Virus record (IMG/VR): IMGVR_UViG_3300030118_003062
Span: 5,446 to 30,771 of that record
Length of the DNA stretch: 25,326 bases
Direction: 5' to 3' (one strand)
DNA from: a virus
In this document: positions 20,585 to 25,326 of the stretch, in pieces
Position numbering within the stretch: the stretch's first letter is position 1
How the letters are laid out: each line of letters opens with the position of its first letter
The notes under the pieces: generated by a model
Told to the model about the DNA's origin: nothing
Database searches by the model: none
Seen by the model: the letters and a program-made list of their open reading frames with translations, nothing else
Position numbers and translations under genes: made by a program

Positions 20585-21358
20585 ATGACAGGATTAGAAA
20601 TAGCCGCATTATCTGGAGGTATAGGAACACTAGCCTCTAGTTTAACAAATGGGTTTCAAGGAGACTTTTATAAGCCTTTACATGCTTCTGATATTGGTAA
20701 GCAATTTGACCAAGGTGGCTATGTAGGTAAGATAGCAGCAAGATCTGATGAGCTTATGGATCCGTCTTCTAATTATAATGTCGGTGTTCGTGATTCATTA
20801 AAACAACAAACCAACGATCAAGTATTTGCTCAAAATCTTTTAAATAGACGTAATATGGCAGCATCTGGAATGATTGGTCAATCTGGTGTTTTACAGCAAC
20901 TTCAAAGCCAAAATCAAAATCAAGCATATAATAACATGGTTGCTCAGACTAGAGCGGGCATATCTGCTAATTTAGATAGAAGTAATACATTATTAAATCA
21001 AGCAGCACAGTTTGACCTAGCTAAAGGAGAAGCAATGGCTTCTGCTTATGGTCAAAACATTACTAATCAAAATAACTTAGCTGCTGCAAGGGCTGGAAAT
21101 TTAACTAGTACTCTTGGAGGAATTGCAAGTGCTGGTGTAATGATGATGTCTGATAAACGTAAAAAAGAAAACATTAAAAAAATTGGACAAGCAAAGACTA
21201 AGAGTGGAAAATCTGTAAATCTTTATAGTTATAACTTTAAAGGTTCTAAGAAAAAGAATGTAGGAGTTATTGCTCAGGAAGTTCAAAAGTCTCATCCTAA
21301 AGCCGTTAAGAAACAAAAGAACGGAATGTTAATGGTTAATTATAAGGAGTTGTTTTAG
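20585..21358 (+). CDS. Ejection-like protein with C-terminal S74 self-cleaving chaperone
   Basis: 257 residues from the ATG at 20585. The first ~188 are Gly/Ala/Gln/Asn-rich with a short hydrophobic start (LEIAALSGGIGTLASSL) and helices such as QLQSQNQNQAYNNMVAQ, resembling T7 gp14-type small internal virion proteins more than fibres. The C-terminus is an S74 (intramolecular chaperone, endosialidase-type) domain: SDKRKKENIKKIG starting at S189, LYSYNFKG, GVIAQEVQKSHPKAV, and a terminal VNYKELF. Ser189 and Lys194 match the Ser-Lys pair used for self-cleavage by S74 domains and by MyRF. Cleavage would release a ~69-residue chaperone. The stop overlaps the next GTG as TAGTG. The domain assignment is firm; the ejection role is inferred. 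Confidence 0.85.
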   Translation: MTGLEIAALSGGIGTLASSLTNGFQGDFYKPLHASDIGKQFDQGGYVGKIAARSDELMDPSSNYNVGVRDSLKQQTNDQVFAQNLLNRRNMAASGMIGQSGVLQQLQSQNQNQAYNNMVAQTRAGISANLDRSNTLLNQAAQFDLAKGEAMASAYGQNITNQNNLAAARAGNLTSTLGGIASAGVMMMSDKRKKENIKKIGQAKTKSGKSVNLYSYNFKGSKKKNVGVIAQEVQKSHPKAVKKQKNGMLMVNYKELF

Positions 21359-22014
21359 TGAACGTTCCATGGGATGAAGCACCACCATCGGGAACGCCAG
21401 AAAGAAGAGCGTTTTACGATTATTATAAACTCGATTATGATGATTCAATAGACCAAAATGTACCCGCATCTAAAGAGTTACCCAAGTCTCCAGCGTTAAA
21501 GCCAAAGCAAGATAAATTATCTTTTCTAAAGCCTCTAAATATTAGAAAGGTTGACCCTAACGCTTTAAAAGAATATGGTGGTGACTTTAATGTAAAAGAT
21601 ATAAAGCCTTATAGTCAGCAAAGTTTTCTAAAGGATGCTATTAGTAACGTAAAAGATTTCTGGAAAGATTTAAGACCAGAAGAACGTAGAGCTGCAGAAG
21701 TTACAGATAGAGAGCCTATTAAGTATGCTCCTCAAGAAATAATGGAGAATTATGACCCAGATAAAGACCCAAGGATGCTACAGCCAGAAGTAGAAGTTAT
21801 TGGTAAGCGTCCTTCATTTTTAGAGGCAGCAATGAGTCCAGGGGCAATAGACCCTGAAGCTATGCAAGCAAGTATGGTTATAAATAAAAGAAAACAAATG
21901 GCTGGAGATTTGTTTAAAACTGAAACAGTACAAGCACAACCATTTAGCATAAAAACTAAGAAACTATCAAGTCAAGGATTTGGGGGAGCAGGAGGCTACA
22001 AGTATGGCGGTTAA
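21358..22014 (+). CDS. Pro/Lys-rich protein, putative virion ejection component
   Basis: 218 residues from the GTG at 21358, overlapping the previous stop. Rich in Pro, Lys, Asp and Glu, low in hydrophobics, with probably disordered segments (NVPASKELPKSPALKPKQDK). A short motif EVEVIGKRP occurs at ~144-152, and the end is Gly-rich (SSQGFGGAGGYKYGG). No catalytic motif, Cys or membrane segment is present. It overlaps the next gene by 11 bases. Its position between an S74-tailed protein and a coiled-coil protein suggests a shared ejection module, as with adjacent internal-virion genes of T7-like phages. Function is inferred from context only. Confidence 0.55.
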   Translation: MNVPWDEAPPSGTPERRAFYDYYKLDYDDSIDQNVPASKELPKSPALKPKQDKLSFLKPLNIRKVDPNALKEYGGDFNVKDIKPYSQQSFLKDAISNVKDFWKDLRPEERRAAEVTDREPIKYAPQEIMENYDPDKDPRMLQPEVEVIGKRPSFLEAAMSPGAIDPEAMQASMVINKRKQMAGDLFKTETVQAQPFSIKTKKLSSQGFGGAGGYKYGG

Positions 22015-23581
22015 TTTTGGAACATTCGAAGGTCATAGAATATTATCAGATTCTACAAATAAAACTGTCGACAGGCTACTTAATGCTGTAAAAGAAAAAC
22101 AGCGTCAAGAAGAAGAGAAAAAAAGACTTGAATTAGAACAGAATAGATTTAAAGAATCAAAAAGGCAATTTGATGAGAGGTTAGAGTTCGATCAAGGCGT
22201 TTCCGACAGGGATTATGAATTTAAAGAGAAAGATTTTATACAAAGCGAAATAGAAAGATATCAAAATACTACTGGGTATGCAGGAGTAGCGCAATATGAT
22301 GATGAAGGAAACTTTATAGGAGTTACATCACCATTAAAAGATGGTAAGAAAACACCTACGTTTGCAAAGACAACATCTGACCGTACTTTTAACTTAGAAG
22401 AAAGAAAACAAGGCTTTGTGGAAGATTCTTTTAAGAAAGAACTTCAGTATAAGTATGACCTTAAAGATCAAGATGATCGTCAATTTTTCGCTAAACTAGA
22501 TTCTACAGAAGCAATGGCGCTAGATAGATTAATACTTGACTACGATAAAATGGATCAAGACTGGGCTAAGTTTTCAGAGTCTATAGCTTTAGAAGCCGAC
22601 AAATTAGGTTTTGATATTTCCAAGTGGGACGATACTAAAATAATGCAGTTTAAGCAATTTGCTGAAAATCAAAGGCAGTTCAATGTATCGTCAGCTCAAA
22701 AAGATAAAACGATTGAGCAAAATCAGCAACAAATAGATTCAAATTTACAAAATGATGAACAAAACAGAATAATAAAGGCTTACAATCTTGACCAAGTTAA
22801 GAAGGGTAACAAGAAGATAGAAAGCAGAGAAGATAATGTTGCTTTATTTAATGATATAATTAGTTCTCTACCAGCAAGTGAGGGAACGTCATCAGAAGAA
22901 GGTATAACCCCTTCTTTACTAGATGTTGCTCTTTTTTCTGATGCACAACTTAATAACATGCTAATTGAAGCTGGTGGTAAAGCGCTAGATGCTCAAGGCA
23001 TAAAGGAAGTTCGACAGAACATAAAAGACCAGAAAACTAGAAATGTCTCTGCATACGAATTAGATATGGTTCCTGGAGACGACCCTGCAAAACGTATGGT
23101 ATTTGGTGTTGAAGGAGAAGTTCCTGCTGATTTAAATAAGCAAATGCTAAAAAAGACAGGCAACGTTGGAGGAATAAACTCATACGATATTAATGACTCT
23201 TCAAATGATGATACAACAACACTTCTTAATACTGTTAAAGCAAGTAAGTTTCAGAACGATATAGTGTTAGACGGAGATACAGAACTTTCGTTTAGTAAGC
23301 CTAGTAAAAGAAAAGTTGATTATCAAAAAGATGGTACACTATTAAATGCGTGGAAAAAAGAATTAACAAAAATAGCTAGAGATAATGATGACCTTGACGA
23401 TATGGATATACGTGCAAACAATGATGGCACATATACTTTATCAGAGTGGGATCCACTATTCAATGATACAGTAAAAATTAAAGTAGATGAAAACGGCAAC
23501 CCAATGTTCCTAGATCCTGATAGCGGAGAATATGTTTTATTAGGAGCCAATCTAGATGCATTTTTAGACGAGCTGAAGTAA
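22004..23581 (+). CDS. Coiled-coil internal virion-like protein
   Basis: 525 residues. I choose the ATG at 22004 because AGGAGG (21990-21995) precedes it; an in-frame TTG at 21980 would add eight residues. The N-terminal ~300 residues are dominated by long charged helices (AVKEKQRQEEEKKRLELEQN, DERLEFDQGVSDRDYEFKEK). The C-terminal ~200 residues are mixed, with acidic turns (ARDNDDLDDMDIRANNDGTY) and a terminal strand/helix pair (DPDSGEYVLLGANLDAFLDE). No enzyme motif is recognised. A long coiled coil with a terminal globular part, next to a large membrane-active-looking protein, suggests an internal virion or DNA-ejection protein. Confidence 0.6.
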   Translation: MAVNFGTFEGHRILSDSTNKTVDRLLNAVKEKQRQEEEKKRLELEQNRFKESKRQFDERLEFDQGVSDRDYEFKEKDFIQSEIERYQNTTGYAGVAQYDDEGNFIGVTSPLKDGKKTPTFAKTTSDRTFNLEERKQGFVEDSFKKELQYKYDLKDQDDRQFFAKLDSTEAMALDRLILDYDKMDQDWAKFSESIALEADKLGFDISKWDDTKIMQFKQFAENQRQFNVSSAQKDKTIEQNQQQIDSNLQNDEQNRIIKAYNLDQVKKGNKKIESREDNVALFNDIISSLPASEGTSSEEGITPSLLDVALFSDAQLNNMLIEAGGKALDAQGIKEVRQNIKDQKTRNVSAYELDMVPGDDPAKRMVFGVEGEVPADLNKQMLKKTGNVGGINSYDINDSSNDDTTTLLNTVKASKFQNDIVLDGDTELSFSKPSKRKVDYQKDGTLLNAWKKELTKIARDNDDLDDMDIRANNDGTYTLSEWDPLFNDTVKIKVDENGNPMFLDPDSGEYVLLGANLDAFLDELK

Positions 23582-23590
23582 GGAGATATA

Positions 23591-25326
23591 ATGGCAATTA
23601 CGTACAAACAATATGGTGGTGGTAGTAGCAGTGATATAACACCTGAAGAAAGACAATTAAAGAACGAACGTACTCGTATTGAGTCTATGATTCGTTCTTA
23701 TGAGCGTAATCCAGATAATTATAATCCTAGAATGGTAGCATCGTTAGAAAGAATGGCTACTCAGTATGGTTTAATGTTTAATAGAGTAGAACCAGAGGCT
23801 AGTACAGGTGCTAAAGTTATGGCAGGTGTCGGAGGCTTTGCTGATGCTATACTAATGGACTTAATACCTGATAGCATATATTCTGATGACTCTACAACAG
23901 ATATACGTAATAAGGCTAAAATGGTAGGTACTGGAGCGTCATTTTTACTAGGTACAGGGTTAGCCAGTGCTGGAGTTAGAACTGCCGCTAAATTAGGTGC
24001 TAAAGGTGCTACTGCATTAGCTGCCAAGCAAGCCACTAGAGCAGCCGCTAAAAAATCATCTAAAGAAGTAGCAGAAGAAGCTGCTAAAAGTCAAGCTAAA
24101 AGAGCTCGTCAAGGTGATGTTGGAGTTGCAGGTGAAAAAGTTGGAGAAAGTATAGGCGGAGCAGTCTCAGGTGGTGGGGCTAGAAAAGCTGCAGGCGAAG
24201 CATTTGATAACATTGATTCTAATGCTATTAAAAATGCTGCTAAAAAATTAGAGGATAGTGAAGTAGCAAAAGGTCAAGCCTTTGGCTTTGATTTAAAAAA
24301 CGCTGGTGCGCCCGCTGCTTTAGGTAATATGGCAAAGAAAAATATATCTGAAGGGTTAACAGATATTGGGCAAGCACAAGGCTTTAAATGGGCCCAAAAC
24401 GCTCTTAGTAAGAATGTTATAAAAGTTATTGAAGACAATCCTATGTCTGGTGCCGAAATTACTAAACTAATTAAAGGTCACAAGTTAACTAAAGACCAAA
24501 TTTTAGACATAACAAAAGCTATTTCTACTAAGCATGGCGCTAACAGTGCTTATGGTAAGAGCCTTATTGCTAAAGTAAAAGGAGCAAGTAAAGATATAGA
24601 CTTAGATCCTGAATCAATATTAAAGATTGTACAGAATATAGGTCCTAAAATGGATATTGCTAACAAAGCAAACGTTACAAAAGTCATACAAAACGCTGGT
24701 TTTAAATTTAACAAGGCTGGAAATGGCGCAGGTGACGAAGTATTAGAATTACTTAACAAGGCTAAACTTATTGGTAAGGATAAAAAGATTAGTAATGTTA
24801 TAGAATATTTAGAACAAGCAGGTTTAATTACAAGACCAAGAAATAATTATGAAATAGTAGGTAATAGTTTTTTTAATACAACAACAGAATTTGATGAGCC
24901 AAATATTTTAAATGAAAGAACTGTTAAGTTAGCTAAGTTAATTAGTCCAAATAAAGAAGTTGAATTAGTTATAAATAAACTCTTAAGGGCTGGTGGTATT
25001 GAAGGTTATGTAAATCAACCGTTCTTACCTATGAAAGATATTTTAACTGAAGCTGAACGCATGGGAACTTTTATTACTTTGTTTGACCCTAATGACTATG
25101 CAGGTGTTGGTAAGCATGTACCTATTGTAAGAATAGATAATCCAGAAACTTTTGTAAGACTACATAATCGAAAAAATACTTTGACGTTAACAGGTCAGTT
25201 TGACACAGTTCTAAGTAAAAACACACCACCATTAACTAGGTATAAAGATTTAAATATTGCTTACGACCAAAGAGTACTAGATGAAGGATTTGAAAGCCGT
25301 GTACTATTTGATAAAGGATTTAATGT
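23591..25326 (+). CDS. Large internal virion/ejection protein, 3' end outside the window
   Basis: The ATG at 23591 follows AAGGAGATATA and the frame stays open to the last base, giving at least 578 residues. The N-terminal ~80 residues are polar and charged. A Gly/Ala-rich amphipathic stretch follows at ~100-160 (GASFLLGTGLASAGVRTAAK, TALAAKQATRAAAKK), the kind of segment by which ejected virion proteins insert into membranes. Long helices continue, and around residues 375-430 a region with VLELLNKAKLIGK and IEYLEQAGLITRPRNNYEI looks like a winged-helix unit. The visible C-terminal part (TLFDPNDYAGVGKHVPIVRI) is unassigned. Position and size fit the largest ejection protein. Whether it carries a transglycosylase or polymerase domain downstream cannot be seen. 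Confidence 0.6.
   Translation, partial: MAITYKQYGGGSSSDITPEERQLKNERTRIESMIRSYERNPDNYNPRMVASLERMATQYGLMFNRVEPEASTGAKVMAGVGGFADAILMDLIPDSIYSDDSTTDIRNKAKMVGTGASFLLGTGLASAGVRTAAKLGAKGATALAAKQATRAAAKKSSKEVAEEAAKSQAKRARQGDVGVAGEKVGESIGGAVSGGGARKAAGEAFDNIDSNAIKNAAKKLEDSEVAKGQAFGFDLKNAGAPAALGNMAKKNISEGLTDIGQAQGFKWAQNALSKNVIKVIEDNPMSGAEITKLIKGHKLTKDQILDITKAISTKHGANSAYGKSLIAKVKGASKDIDLDPESILKIVQNIGPKMDIANKANVTKVIQNAGFKFNKAGNGAGDEVLELLNKAKLIGKDKKISNVIEYLEQAGLITRPRNNYEIVGNSFFNTTTEFDEPNILNERTVKLAKLISPNKEVELVINKLLRAGGIEGYVNQPFLPMKDILTEAERMGTFITLFDPNDYAGVGKHVPIVRIDNPETFVRLHNRKNTLTLTGQFDTVLSKNTPPLTRYKDLNIAYDQRVLDEGFESRVLFDKGFN

What the first reader, a model, noticed from the sequence alone, without database searches (positions are those of the whole stretch)
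21149..21358. S74 self-cleaving chaperone on a protein that is not a fibre
S74 domains normally end tail fibres or endosialidases, trimerise the beta-helix and then cut themselves off. Here the domain (S189, K194, GVIAQEV) ends a short helical, Gln/Asn-rich protein at the head of the presumed ejection module, while the 1276-aa fibre has none. This suggests a use of the autoprotease in trimerising or timing a tail-tip or ejection protein, or supply of the chaperone in trans.
Basis: partly seen in the sequence, partly recalled or inferred. Interest (0 to 1): 0.65.

Follow-up and report, generated by a model that had tools for sequence, protein, structure and literature searches.

The report
Self-cutting tag on phage ejection protein
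A protein-cutting folding domain known from phage tail fibres here ends a small protein that probably belongs to the phage's DNA-injection machinery; a stripped-down form of that domain sits in the same place in many short-tailed phages and may cut itself off to finish a membrane-pore protein, which I found described nowhere.

Summary
ORF 20585-21358 (257 aa) ends in a Peptidase_S74 domain (Pfam E=6.6e-12, residues 189-242) with S189, K194 and GVIAQEV. It is the only S74 in the 30.8-kb record. Residues 1-188 show no fibre or beta-helix signal.

It is not a one-off. Short S74-tailed proteins sit at the head of ejection modules in many podoviruses. With S74 cut off, three of them (PAE2, vB_PspP-H6/1, Vibrio 199E37-1) still match the P22 gp7 ejection-protein family (E=4e-30 to 6e-12). 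The window's own N-part matches nothing, so its gp7-like role is inferred.

New here: (1) ejection-type S74 lacks the C-terminal coiled coil that trimerises fibre S74 and MYRF; (2) the Ser/Lys dyad is kept anyway (44/46; the other two have Cys for Ser); (3) the scissile Ser follows a Gly-rich hydrophobic tail like the one ending S74-less gp7, so cutting would restore a gp7-type end; (4) some ejection proteins carry one or two internal S74 domains, a possible self-cutting polyprotein.

Best reading: an appended, coil-less autoprotease capping a gp7/gp14-like pore protein. The 'trimeriser' and 'in trans' ideas are disfavoured. Cleavage is not shown.

The parts
20585..21358 (+). Whole gene, 257 aa: putative first ejection protein (gp7/gp14 slot) with C-terminal S74
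   Evidence: ORF; Pfam; relatives
20585..21148 (+). Residues 1-188: Gln/Asn/Gly/Ala-rich, predicted helical; predicted mature product
   Evidence: no PHROG match on its own; conserved in L002-L005 and L121
21092..21148 (+). Residues 170-188: Gly/Ala-rich, uncharged hydrophobic tail just before the predicted cut (AGNLTSTLGGIASAGVMMM)
   Evidence: same kind of tail ends S74-less P22 gp7
21149..21355 (+). Residues 189-257: coil-less Peptidase_S74 domain
21149..21151 (+). Codon of S189, predicted nucleophile; predicted cut is between residues 188 and 189
   Evidence: alignment; conservation
21164..21166 (+). Codon of K194, predicted general base
21358..23581 (+). Next two genes (218 aa, and 525 aa from 22004), presumed ejection-module members
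   Evidence: position only; no family match
23591..25324 (+). Start of a further long gene (578 aa or more, runs off the window), presumed ejection-module member
   Evidence: a relative's module ends in a 3141-aa protein

Best explanation
The gene encodes the first, small protein of a podovirus ejection module (the slot of P22 gp7 and T7 gp14; T7 gp14 makes the outer-membrane pore), with an extra C-terminal S74 autoprotease that lacks the usual trimerising coiled coil. Proposed working: S74 covers the Gly-rich hydrophobic C-terminal tail while the protein is made and assembled. Then Ser189, helped by Lys194, breaks the 188/189 bond and leaves a 188-residue protein that ends, like S74-less gp7, in a free hydrophobic tail ready to insert in the envelope. 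Shown: the domain, its truncation, the conserved dyad, the recurrent position, and the gp7 homology of several S74-tailed relatives. Inferred: that the window protein itself is a gp7 analogue, that it is cleaved, and when.
For: S74 domain. S74 protein is first of the ejection genes in H6/1, phiGT1, Vibrio 199E37-1 and phiM5, and in the same slot in EBPR podovirus 2, PAE2, pCB2047-C and RHph_N2. S74-cut N-parts of PAE2, H6/1 and 199E37-1 match phrog_598 = P22 gp7. Ser and Lys kept in 44/46 short and 22/22 internal domains; the two exceptions, and a third relative found later, have Cys, another nucleophile. The Gly-rich uncharged tail before Ser resembles the natural end of gp7. Predicted product of 188 aa and 20% Gln+Asn resemble gp7/gp14 (PMC8954989). 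In a relative the downstream run ends in a 3141-aa protein.
Against: Known S74 cleavage needs the trimer and, in MYRF, the coiled coil that is absent here (PMC8326128, PMC3742443). The window's N-part has no detectable relation to gp7 and its neighbours have no family match. No mass or gel evidence of cleavage in any ejection-type S74 protein was found.
Confidence: 0.55

Rival explanations
1. The S74 domain no longer cuts. Without the coiled coil it stays attached and serves as a folded docking or solubility cap, for example holding the ejection protein to the portal or a partner; Ser and Lys are kept for the fold.
For: The coil needed for MYRF trimerisation and cleavage is missing (PMC8326128). 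Ser is replaced by Cys in L004, L005 and L121.
Against: Lys at +5 is invariant and Ser nearly so across very diverged families; the replacement seen is the other usual nucleophile; the domain is placed exactly after a gp7-type tail.
Confidence: 0.25
2. The protein is not an ejection protein but another small virion component (tail tip, connector or head-inside protein) of a diverged podovirus, with S74 doing an unrelated assembly job.
For: The N-part has no detectable relation to gp7, and none of its neighbours has a family match.
Against: Composition and length like gp7, the Gly-rich tail before Ser, the slot after the tail genes, and a downstream run ending in a 3141-aa protein.
Confidence: 0.13
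3. Classical use: a trimeric fibre, needle or appendage whose beta-helix is too diverged to see, folded and released by S74 in the usual way.
For: Every S74 protein with a solved structure found here is a trimeric fibre, appendage or MYRF (PMC4690869, PMC8326128).
Against: No strands in residues 1-188 of the model (low confidence); no similarity to fibre N-parts; no coiled coil; gp7 homology of relatives.
Confidence: 0.05
4. S74 is supplied in trans as a folding helper for the 1276-aa fibre.
For: The fibre lacks S74 and lies nearby.
Against: S74 is fused to the same protein in all relatives; no coil for association; no precedent found for action in trans.
Confidence: 0.02

Closest known systems
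P22 gp7 / phrog_598 (first ejection protein; T7 gp14 analogue)
   Same: Same slot before the other ejection genes in named relatives; similar length (229 aa) and Gln/Asn/Gly/Ala-rich make-up; Gly-rich hydrophobic end; some S74-tailed relatives are members by profile
   Different: P22-type gp7 has no S74 (0 of 80); P22 gp7 loses 20 N-terminal residues to host OpdA (record note); the window N-part itself does not match the family
phrog_4287 'DNA ejection protein' and phrog_6121 'virion structural protein'
   Same: Contain S74 at the C-terminus of ejection-slot proteins, so the architecture is already clustered and named in a database
   Different: The window matches them mainly through S74; its N-part alone does not match
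Fibre and endosialidase S74 (K1F, T5 pb1, GA-1 appendage)
   Same: Same domain, SDxRxK dyad, C-terminal place
   Different: They have a C-terminal trimeric coiled coil and an upstream triple beta-helix; the window has neither
MYRF ICA domain (7dc3)
   Same: Closest solved structure to the model (1.6 A over 52 residues, 35% identity); short hairpins; internal position like the polyprotein type
   Different: MYRF keeps the coiled coil and needs it for cleavage

Membership tests
Peptidase_S74 (PF13884) | Profile match over the gathering score | tested here: met
   46 bits against 22
Peptidase_S74 (PF13884) | Ser/Lys catalytic dyad (SDxRxK) | tested here: met
   S189, K194
Fibre/endosialidase-type intramolecular chaperone | C-terminal coiled-coil helix that makes the trimer | tested here: not met
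   Only 24 residues after GVIAQEV; protein ends at the equivalent of MYRF residue 675
Fibre/endosialidase-type intramolecular chaperone | Upstream triple beta-helix | tested here: inconclusive
   No strands modelled in residues 1-188, but pLDDT is low; profile comparison with fibre stalks gave nothing
Fibre/endosialidase-type intramolecular chaperone | Autocleavage before Ser | not testable with these tools
   Needs expression or virion mass spectrometry
P22 gp7 / T7 gp14 first ejection protein | Sequence profile match (phrog_598) | tested here: not met
   No match for the window N-part, hhalign not significant; met by the S74-tailed proteins of PAE2, H6/1 and Vibrio 199E37-1
P22 gp7 / T7 gp14 first ejection protein | First gene of an ejection cluster | tested here: inconclusive
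   Order and sizes fit, but the window's downstream genes have no family match
P22 gp7 / T7 gp14 first ejection protein | Located inside the virion and ejected to the outer membrane | not testable with these tools
   No proteome for this phage; phiM5's S74 protein is recorded as a particle protein

The most novel reading that the evidence does not exclude
Phages use a coil-less, trimer-independent S74 autoprotease as a general maturation switch for ejection proteins. It trims a gp7-like pore protein to expose its membrane tail, with Ser or Cys as nucleophile. In giant fused proteins with one or two internal S74 domains it cuts an ejection polyprotein into its working pieces.
Probability: 0.33. 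Interest if true: 0.75.

Novelty: new variant of a known kind. Interest (0 to 1): 0.58.

Why it matters
How ejection proteins stay soluble and harmless in the infected cell and become membrane pores later is not well understood; T7 gp14 is water-insoluble on its own (PMC8954989). A removable cap at exactly the tail that ends gp7 would be a testable answer in cultured phages such as PAE2, phiGT1 or vB_PspP-H6/1. It would also show that S74 can work without the coiled coil now thought essential, and would correct the common 'tail fibre' or 'endosialidase chaperone' annotation of these proteins.

Tried and rejected
Fibre or beta-helix origin of residues 1-188: no strands in the (low-confidence) model, and fibre profiles gave nothing. 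Direct homology of the window N-part to gp7: not significant. Foldseek against PDB: no match at E<=0.001; the second look put MyRF first, at a modest Z of 3.8. S74 in trans for the 1276-aa fibre: no evidence, one S74 per record and in cis. Genome collection scan with the N-part: no relatives. Structure prediction of a double internal S74 stretch: low confidence, mean pLDDT 37.5, though S74-like strand order appears at both places. Family tree of S74 domains: only 62 columns, poorly resolved; 31 coiled-coil domains form one branch (99/96), the short type is not one clade. The regular expression behind the dyad counts needed Lys or Arg at +5, so a domain that had lost it would have been dropped; only one (L075, a coiled-coil type) was dropped. 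A domain motif spelled differently (e.g. phiM5, 199E37-1) was missed by the script and read by eye. Papers: searches for S74 with ejection, injection or internal virion terms found no description; the phiM5 paper was not held.

Full report
What is there. The window ORF 20585-21358 codes for 257 residues. AlphaFold models residues 190-257 at pLDDT about 95 and the rest as low-confidence helices with no strands. The whole 30,771-base virus record has one S74 domain, and so does each of four relatives' records; the 1276-aa presumed fibre has none.

Where it sits. Gene order in the window is portal (phrog_156, 4.8e-39), 328 aa, major head protein (phrog_1328, 1.8e-13), small genes, 1653 aa, 1276 aa, 159 aa, the S74 protein, 218 aa, 525 aa, and 578 aa or more. 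In the 53-kb relative (L002/G001) the same run ends in a 3141-aa protein. None of these downstream proteins has a convincing family match, so 'ejection module' for this lineage rests on order and size. In named phages the slot is clearer. vB_PspP-H6/1 has coat, head completion, a DUF2824 head assembly protein, one hypothetical protein, the S74 protein ('putative ejection protein'), two more ejection proteins, tailspike. phiGT1 has tubular tail A and B, acetyltransferase, S74 protein, two internal virion/injection proteins. Vibrio 199E37-1 has 'DNA transfer protein' (S74), 'DNA injection protein', '16'. phiM5 has the S74 protein (recorded in the particle proteome) followed by three internal virion proteins. 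P22 itself has 26, 14, 7, 20, 16. Among sampled loci, the two genes upstream are often GNAT acetyltransferases and the two downstream often endolysin, transglycosylase or internal virion families.

Homology to gp7. With S74 removed, the N-parts of PAE2 (4e-30), H6/1 (1.8e-16) and Vibrio 199E37-1 (5.6e-12) match phrog_598, the family of P22 gp7. So S74 can be an appendage on real gp7 homologues. The N-part of the window protein matches nothing, and profile comparison with gp7 is not significant. For the window protein the gp7-like role is therefore an inference from position, length (188 aa before the cut, against 181-240 aa for gp14/gp7 proteins, PMC8954989), composition (20% Gln+Asn against 18% in P22 gp7 and 8-13% in five other window ORFs) and the tail described below.

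A coil-less S74. In 80 IMG/VR loci and the named phages, the length after the GVxAQEV motif falls in two groups: 22-36 residues (median 25, 46 domains, the window 24) and 40-66 (median 45, 36 domains). In most of the second group the extra residues are a helix of the LIEAIKEQQxQIDEL kind. The boundary was set after looking, and a few cases lie near it. In T5 pb1 and MYRF this helix forms the trimeric coiled coil (PMC4690869, PMC8326128), and in MYRF single changes at L685, L692, I696 or L699 block trimerisation and cleavage (PMC8326128). The first row of the structural comparison is the MYRF ICA domain 7dc3 (Z 3.8, 52 residues, 1.6 A, 35% identity); Z is modest. The alignment ends at MYRF residue 675, before all four of those residues. 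Roseobacter phage CRP-235 carries a long-tailed S74 in gp33 and a short one in gp25.

The dyad is kept. Ser is present in 44 of 46 short domains and all 22 internal ones; Lys at +5 is present in all. Codons at Ser are mixed (TCN and AGY). The two exceptions (L004, L005) and a third relative found later (L121) carry Cys. A change only to another nucleophile, with Lys kept, reads more like a working site than a dead one; this is inference.

What lies before the cut. In the short type the 20 residues before Ser are 22% Gly, 4% charged and mildly hydrophobic. The last 20 residues of six S74-less gp7 proteins are 28% Gly and 2% charged; fibre-type S74 is preceded by 11% Gly and 11% charged. Examples: P22 ...AAIGGGIGLLGSLF-end; EBPR podovirus 2 ...SSLLGGIGGLFSL|SDENAK; window ...STLGGIASAGVMMM|SDKRKK. 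All 80 gp7 proteins fetched from IMG/VR lack S74, and most end in GLLGSLF or GGLGSLF; these are close relatives of P22, so they are not 80 independent cases. The predicted cut would thus give back the natural kind of end of the pore protein.

Internal S74. More than a dozen contigs, and the named record MW202675.1 ('internal virion protein D', directly after an acetyltransferase), encode proteins of about 1100-1700 aa with one or two internal S74 domains, at least one followed by a lysozyme-type part (GH108 in L042). Every internal domain keeps Ser and Lys. Parts up to the first S74 match ejection PHROGs (L012, phrog_4287 1.4e-31, residues 4-347). If these domains cut, the protein is a self-processing ejection polyprotein with the topology of MYRF. 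Low-confidence modelling neither supports nor excludes this.

Mechanism proposed. S74 covers the hydrophobic end of a small pore-forming ejection protein during synthesis and assembly, then removes itself (Ser or Cys nucleophile, Lys base), possibly when the oligomer forms. T7 gp14 is insoluble alone and is 8-fold in the virion, 6-fold after ejection (PMC8954989, PMC11784390), so a three-fold chaperone would fit poorly and the loss of the coil makes sense. Against this, cleavage of known S74 domains depends on the trimer (PMC8326128, PMC3742443), and no gel or peptide shows cleavage here. A retained, inactive cap is the main rival.

Known or new. PHROGs already cluster S74-tailed 'DNA ejection' proteins (phrog_4287, phrog_6121), and several depositors noted S74 in this slot. 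I found no paper that describes it, its missing coil, its gp7-like junction or the internal doubles, within an open-access library only. I rate it a new variant of a known kind.

Noticed in passing
L022:1968-7052, L039:4083-8003, L042:2871-7256, L047:2874-7256, L064:2775-7250: Giant presumed ejection proteins with two internal S74 domains each, all with intact SDxRxK; possible self-cutting polyproteins.
   Followed up: partly
L004:5944-6639, L005:5944-6639, L121:3004-3693: Relatives of the window protein with Cys in place of the catalytic Ser (CDARMK, CDAKMK), Lys kept.
   Followed up: partly
L096:5383-6213 (Vibrio phage PVA1, NC_023605): An S74-tailed gp7-like gene is left unannotated directly before the 'released from the phage upon host infection' gene.
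   Followed up: no
L023, L036, L037, L038, L044, L082, L083: Adjacent gene pairs that each end in a coiled-coil S74 domain (a roughly 190-230-aa protein followed by a 550-620-aa one), apparently tandem fibre genes.
   Followed up: no
L110:4282-13704 (IMGVR_UViG_3300030118_003137): A 3141-aa protein with no Pfam or PHROG match closes the module in the relative of the window's phage.
   Followed up: partly
L004:6640-7062 and L005:6640-7065: An extra 140-aa gene with a PEGDGIVGPET-like peptidoglycan-binding look (GVTVDGIVGPETQGAYD) follows the S74 gene in two relatives but not in the window; recognised by eye only.
   Followed up: no
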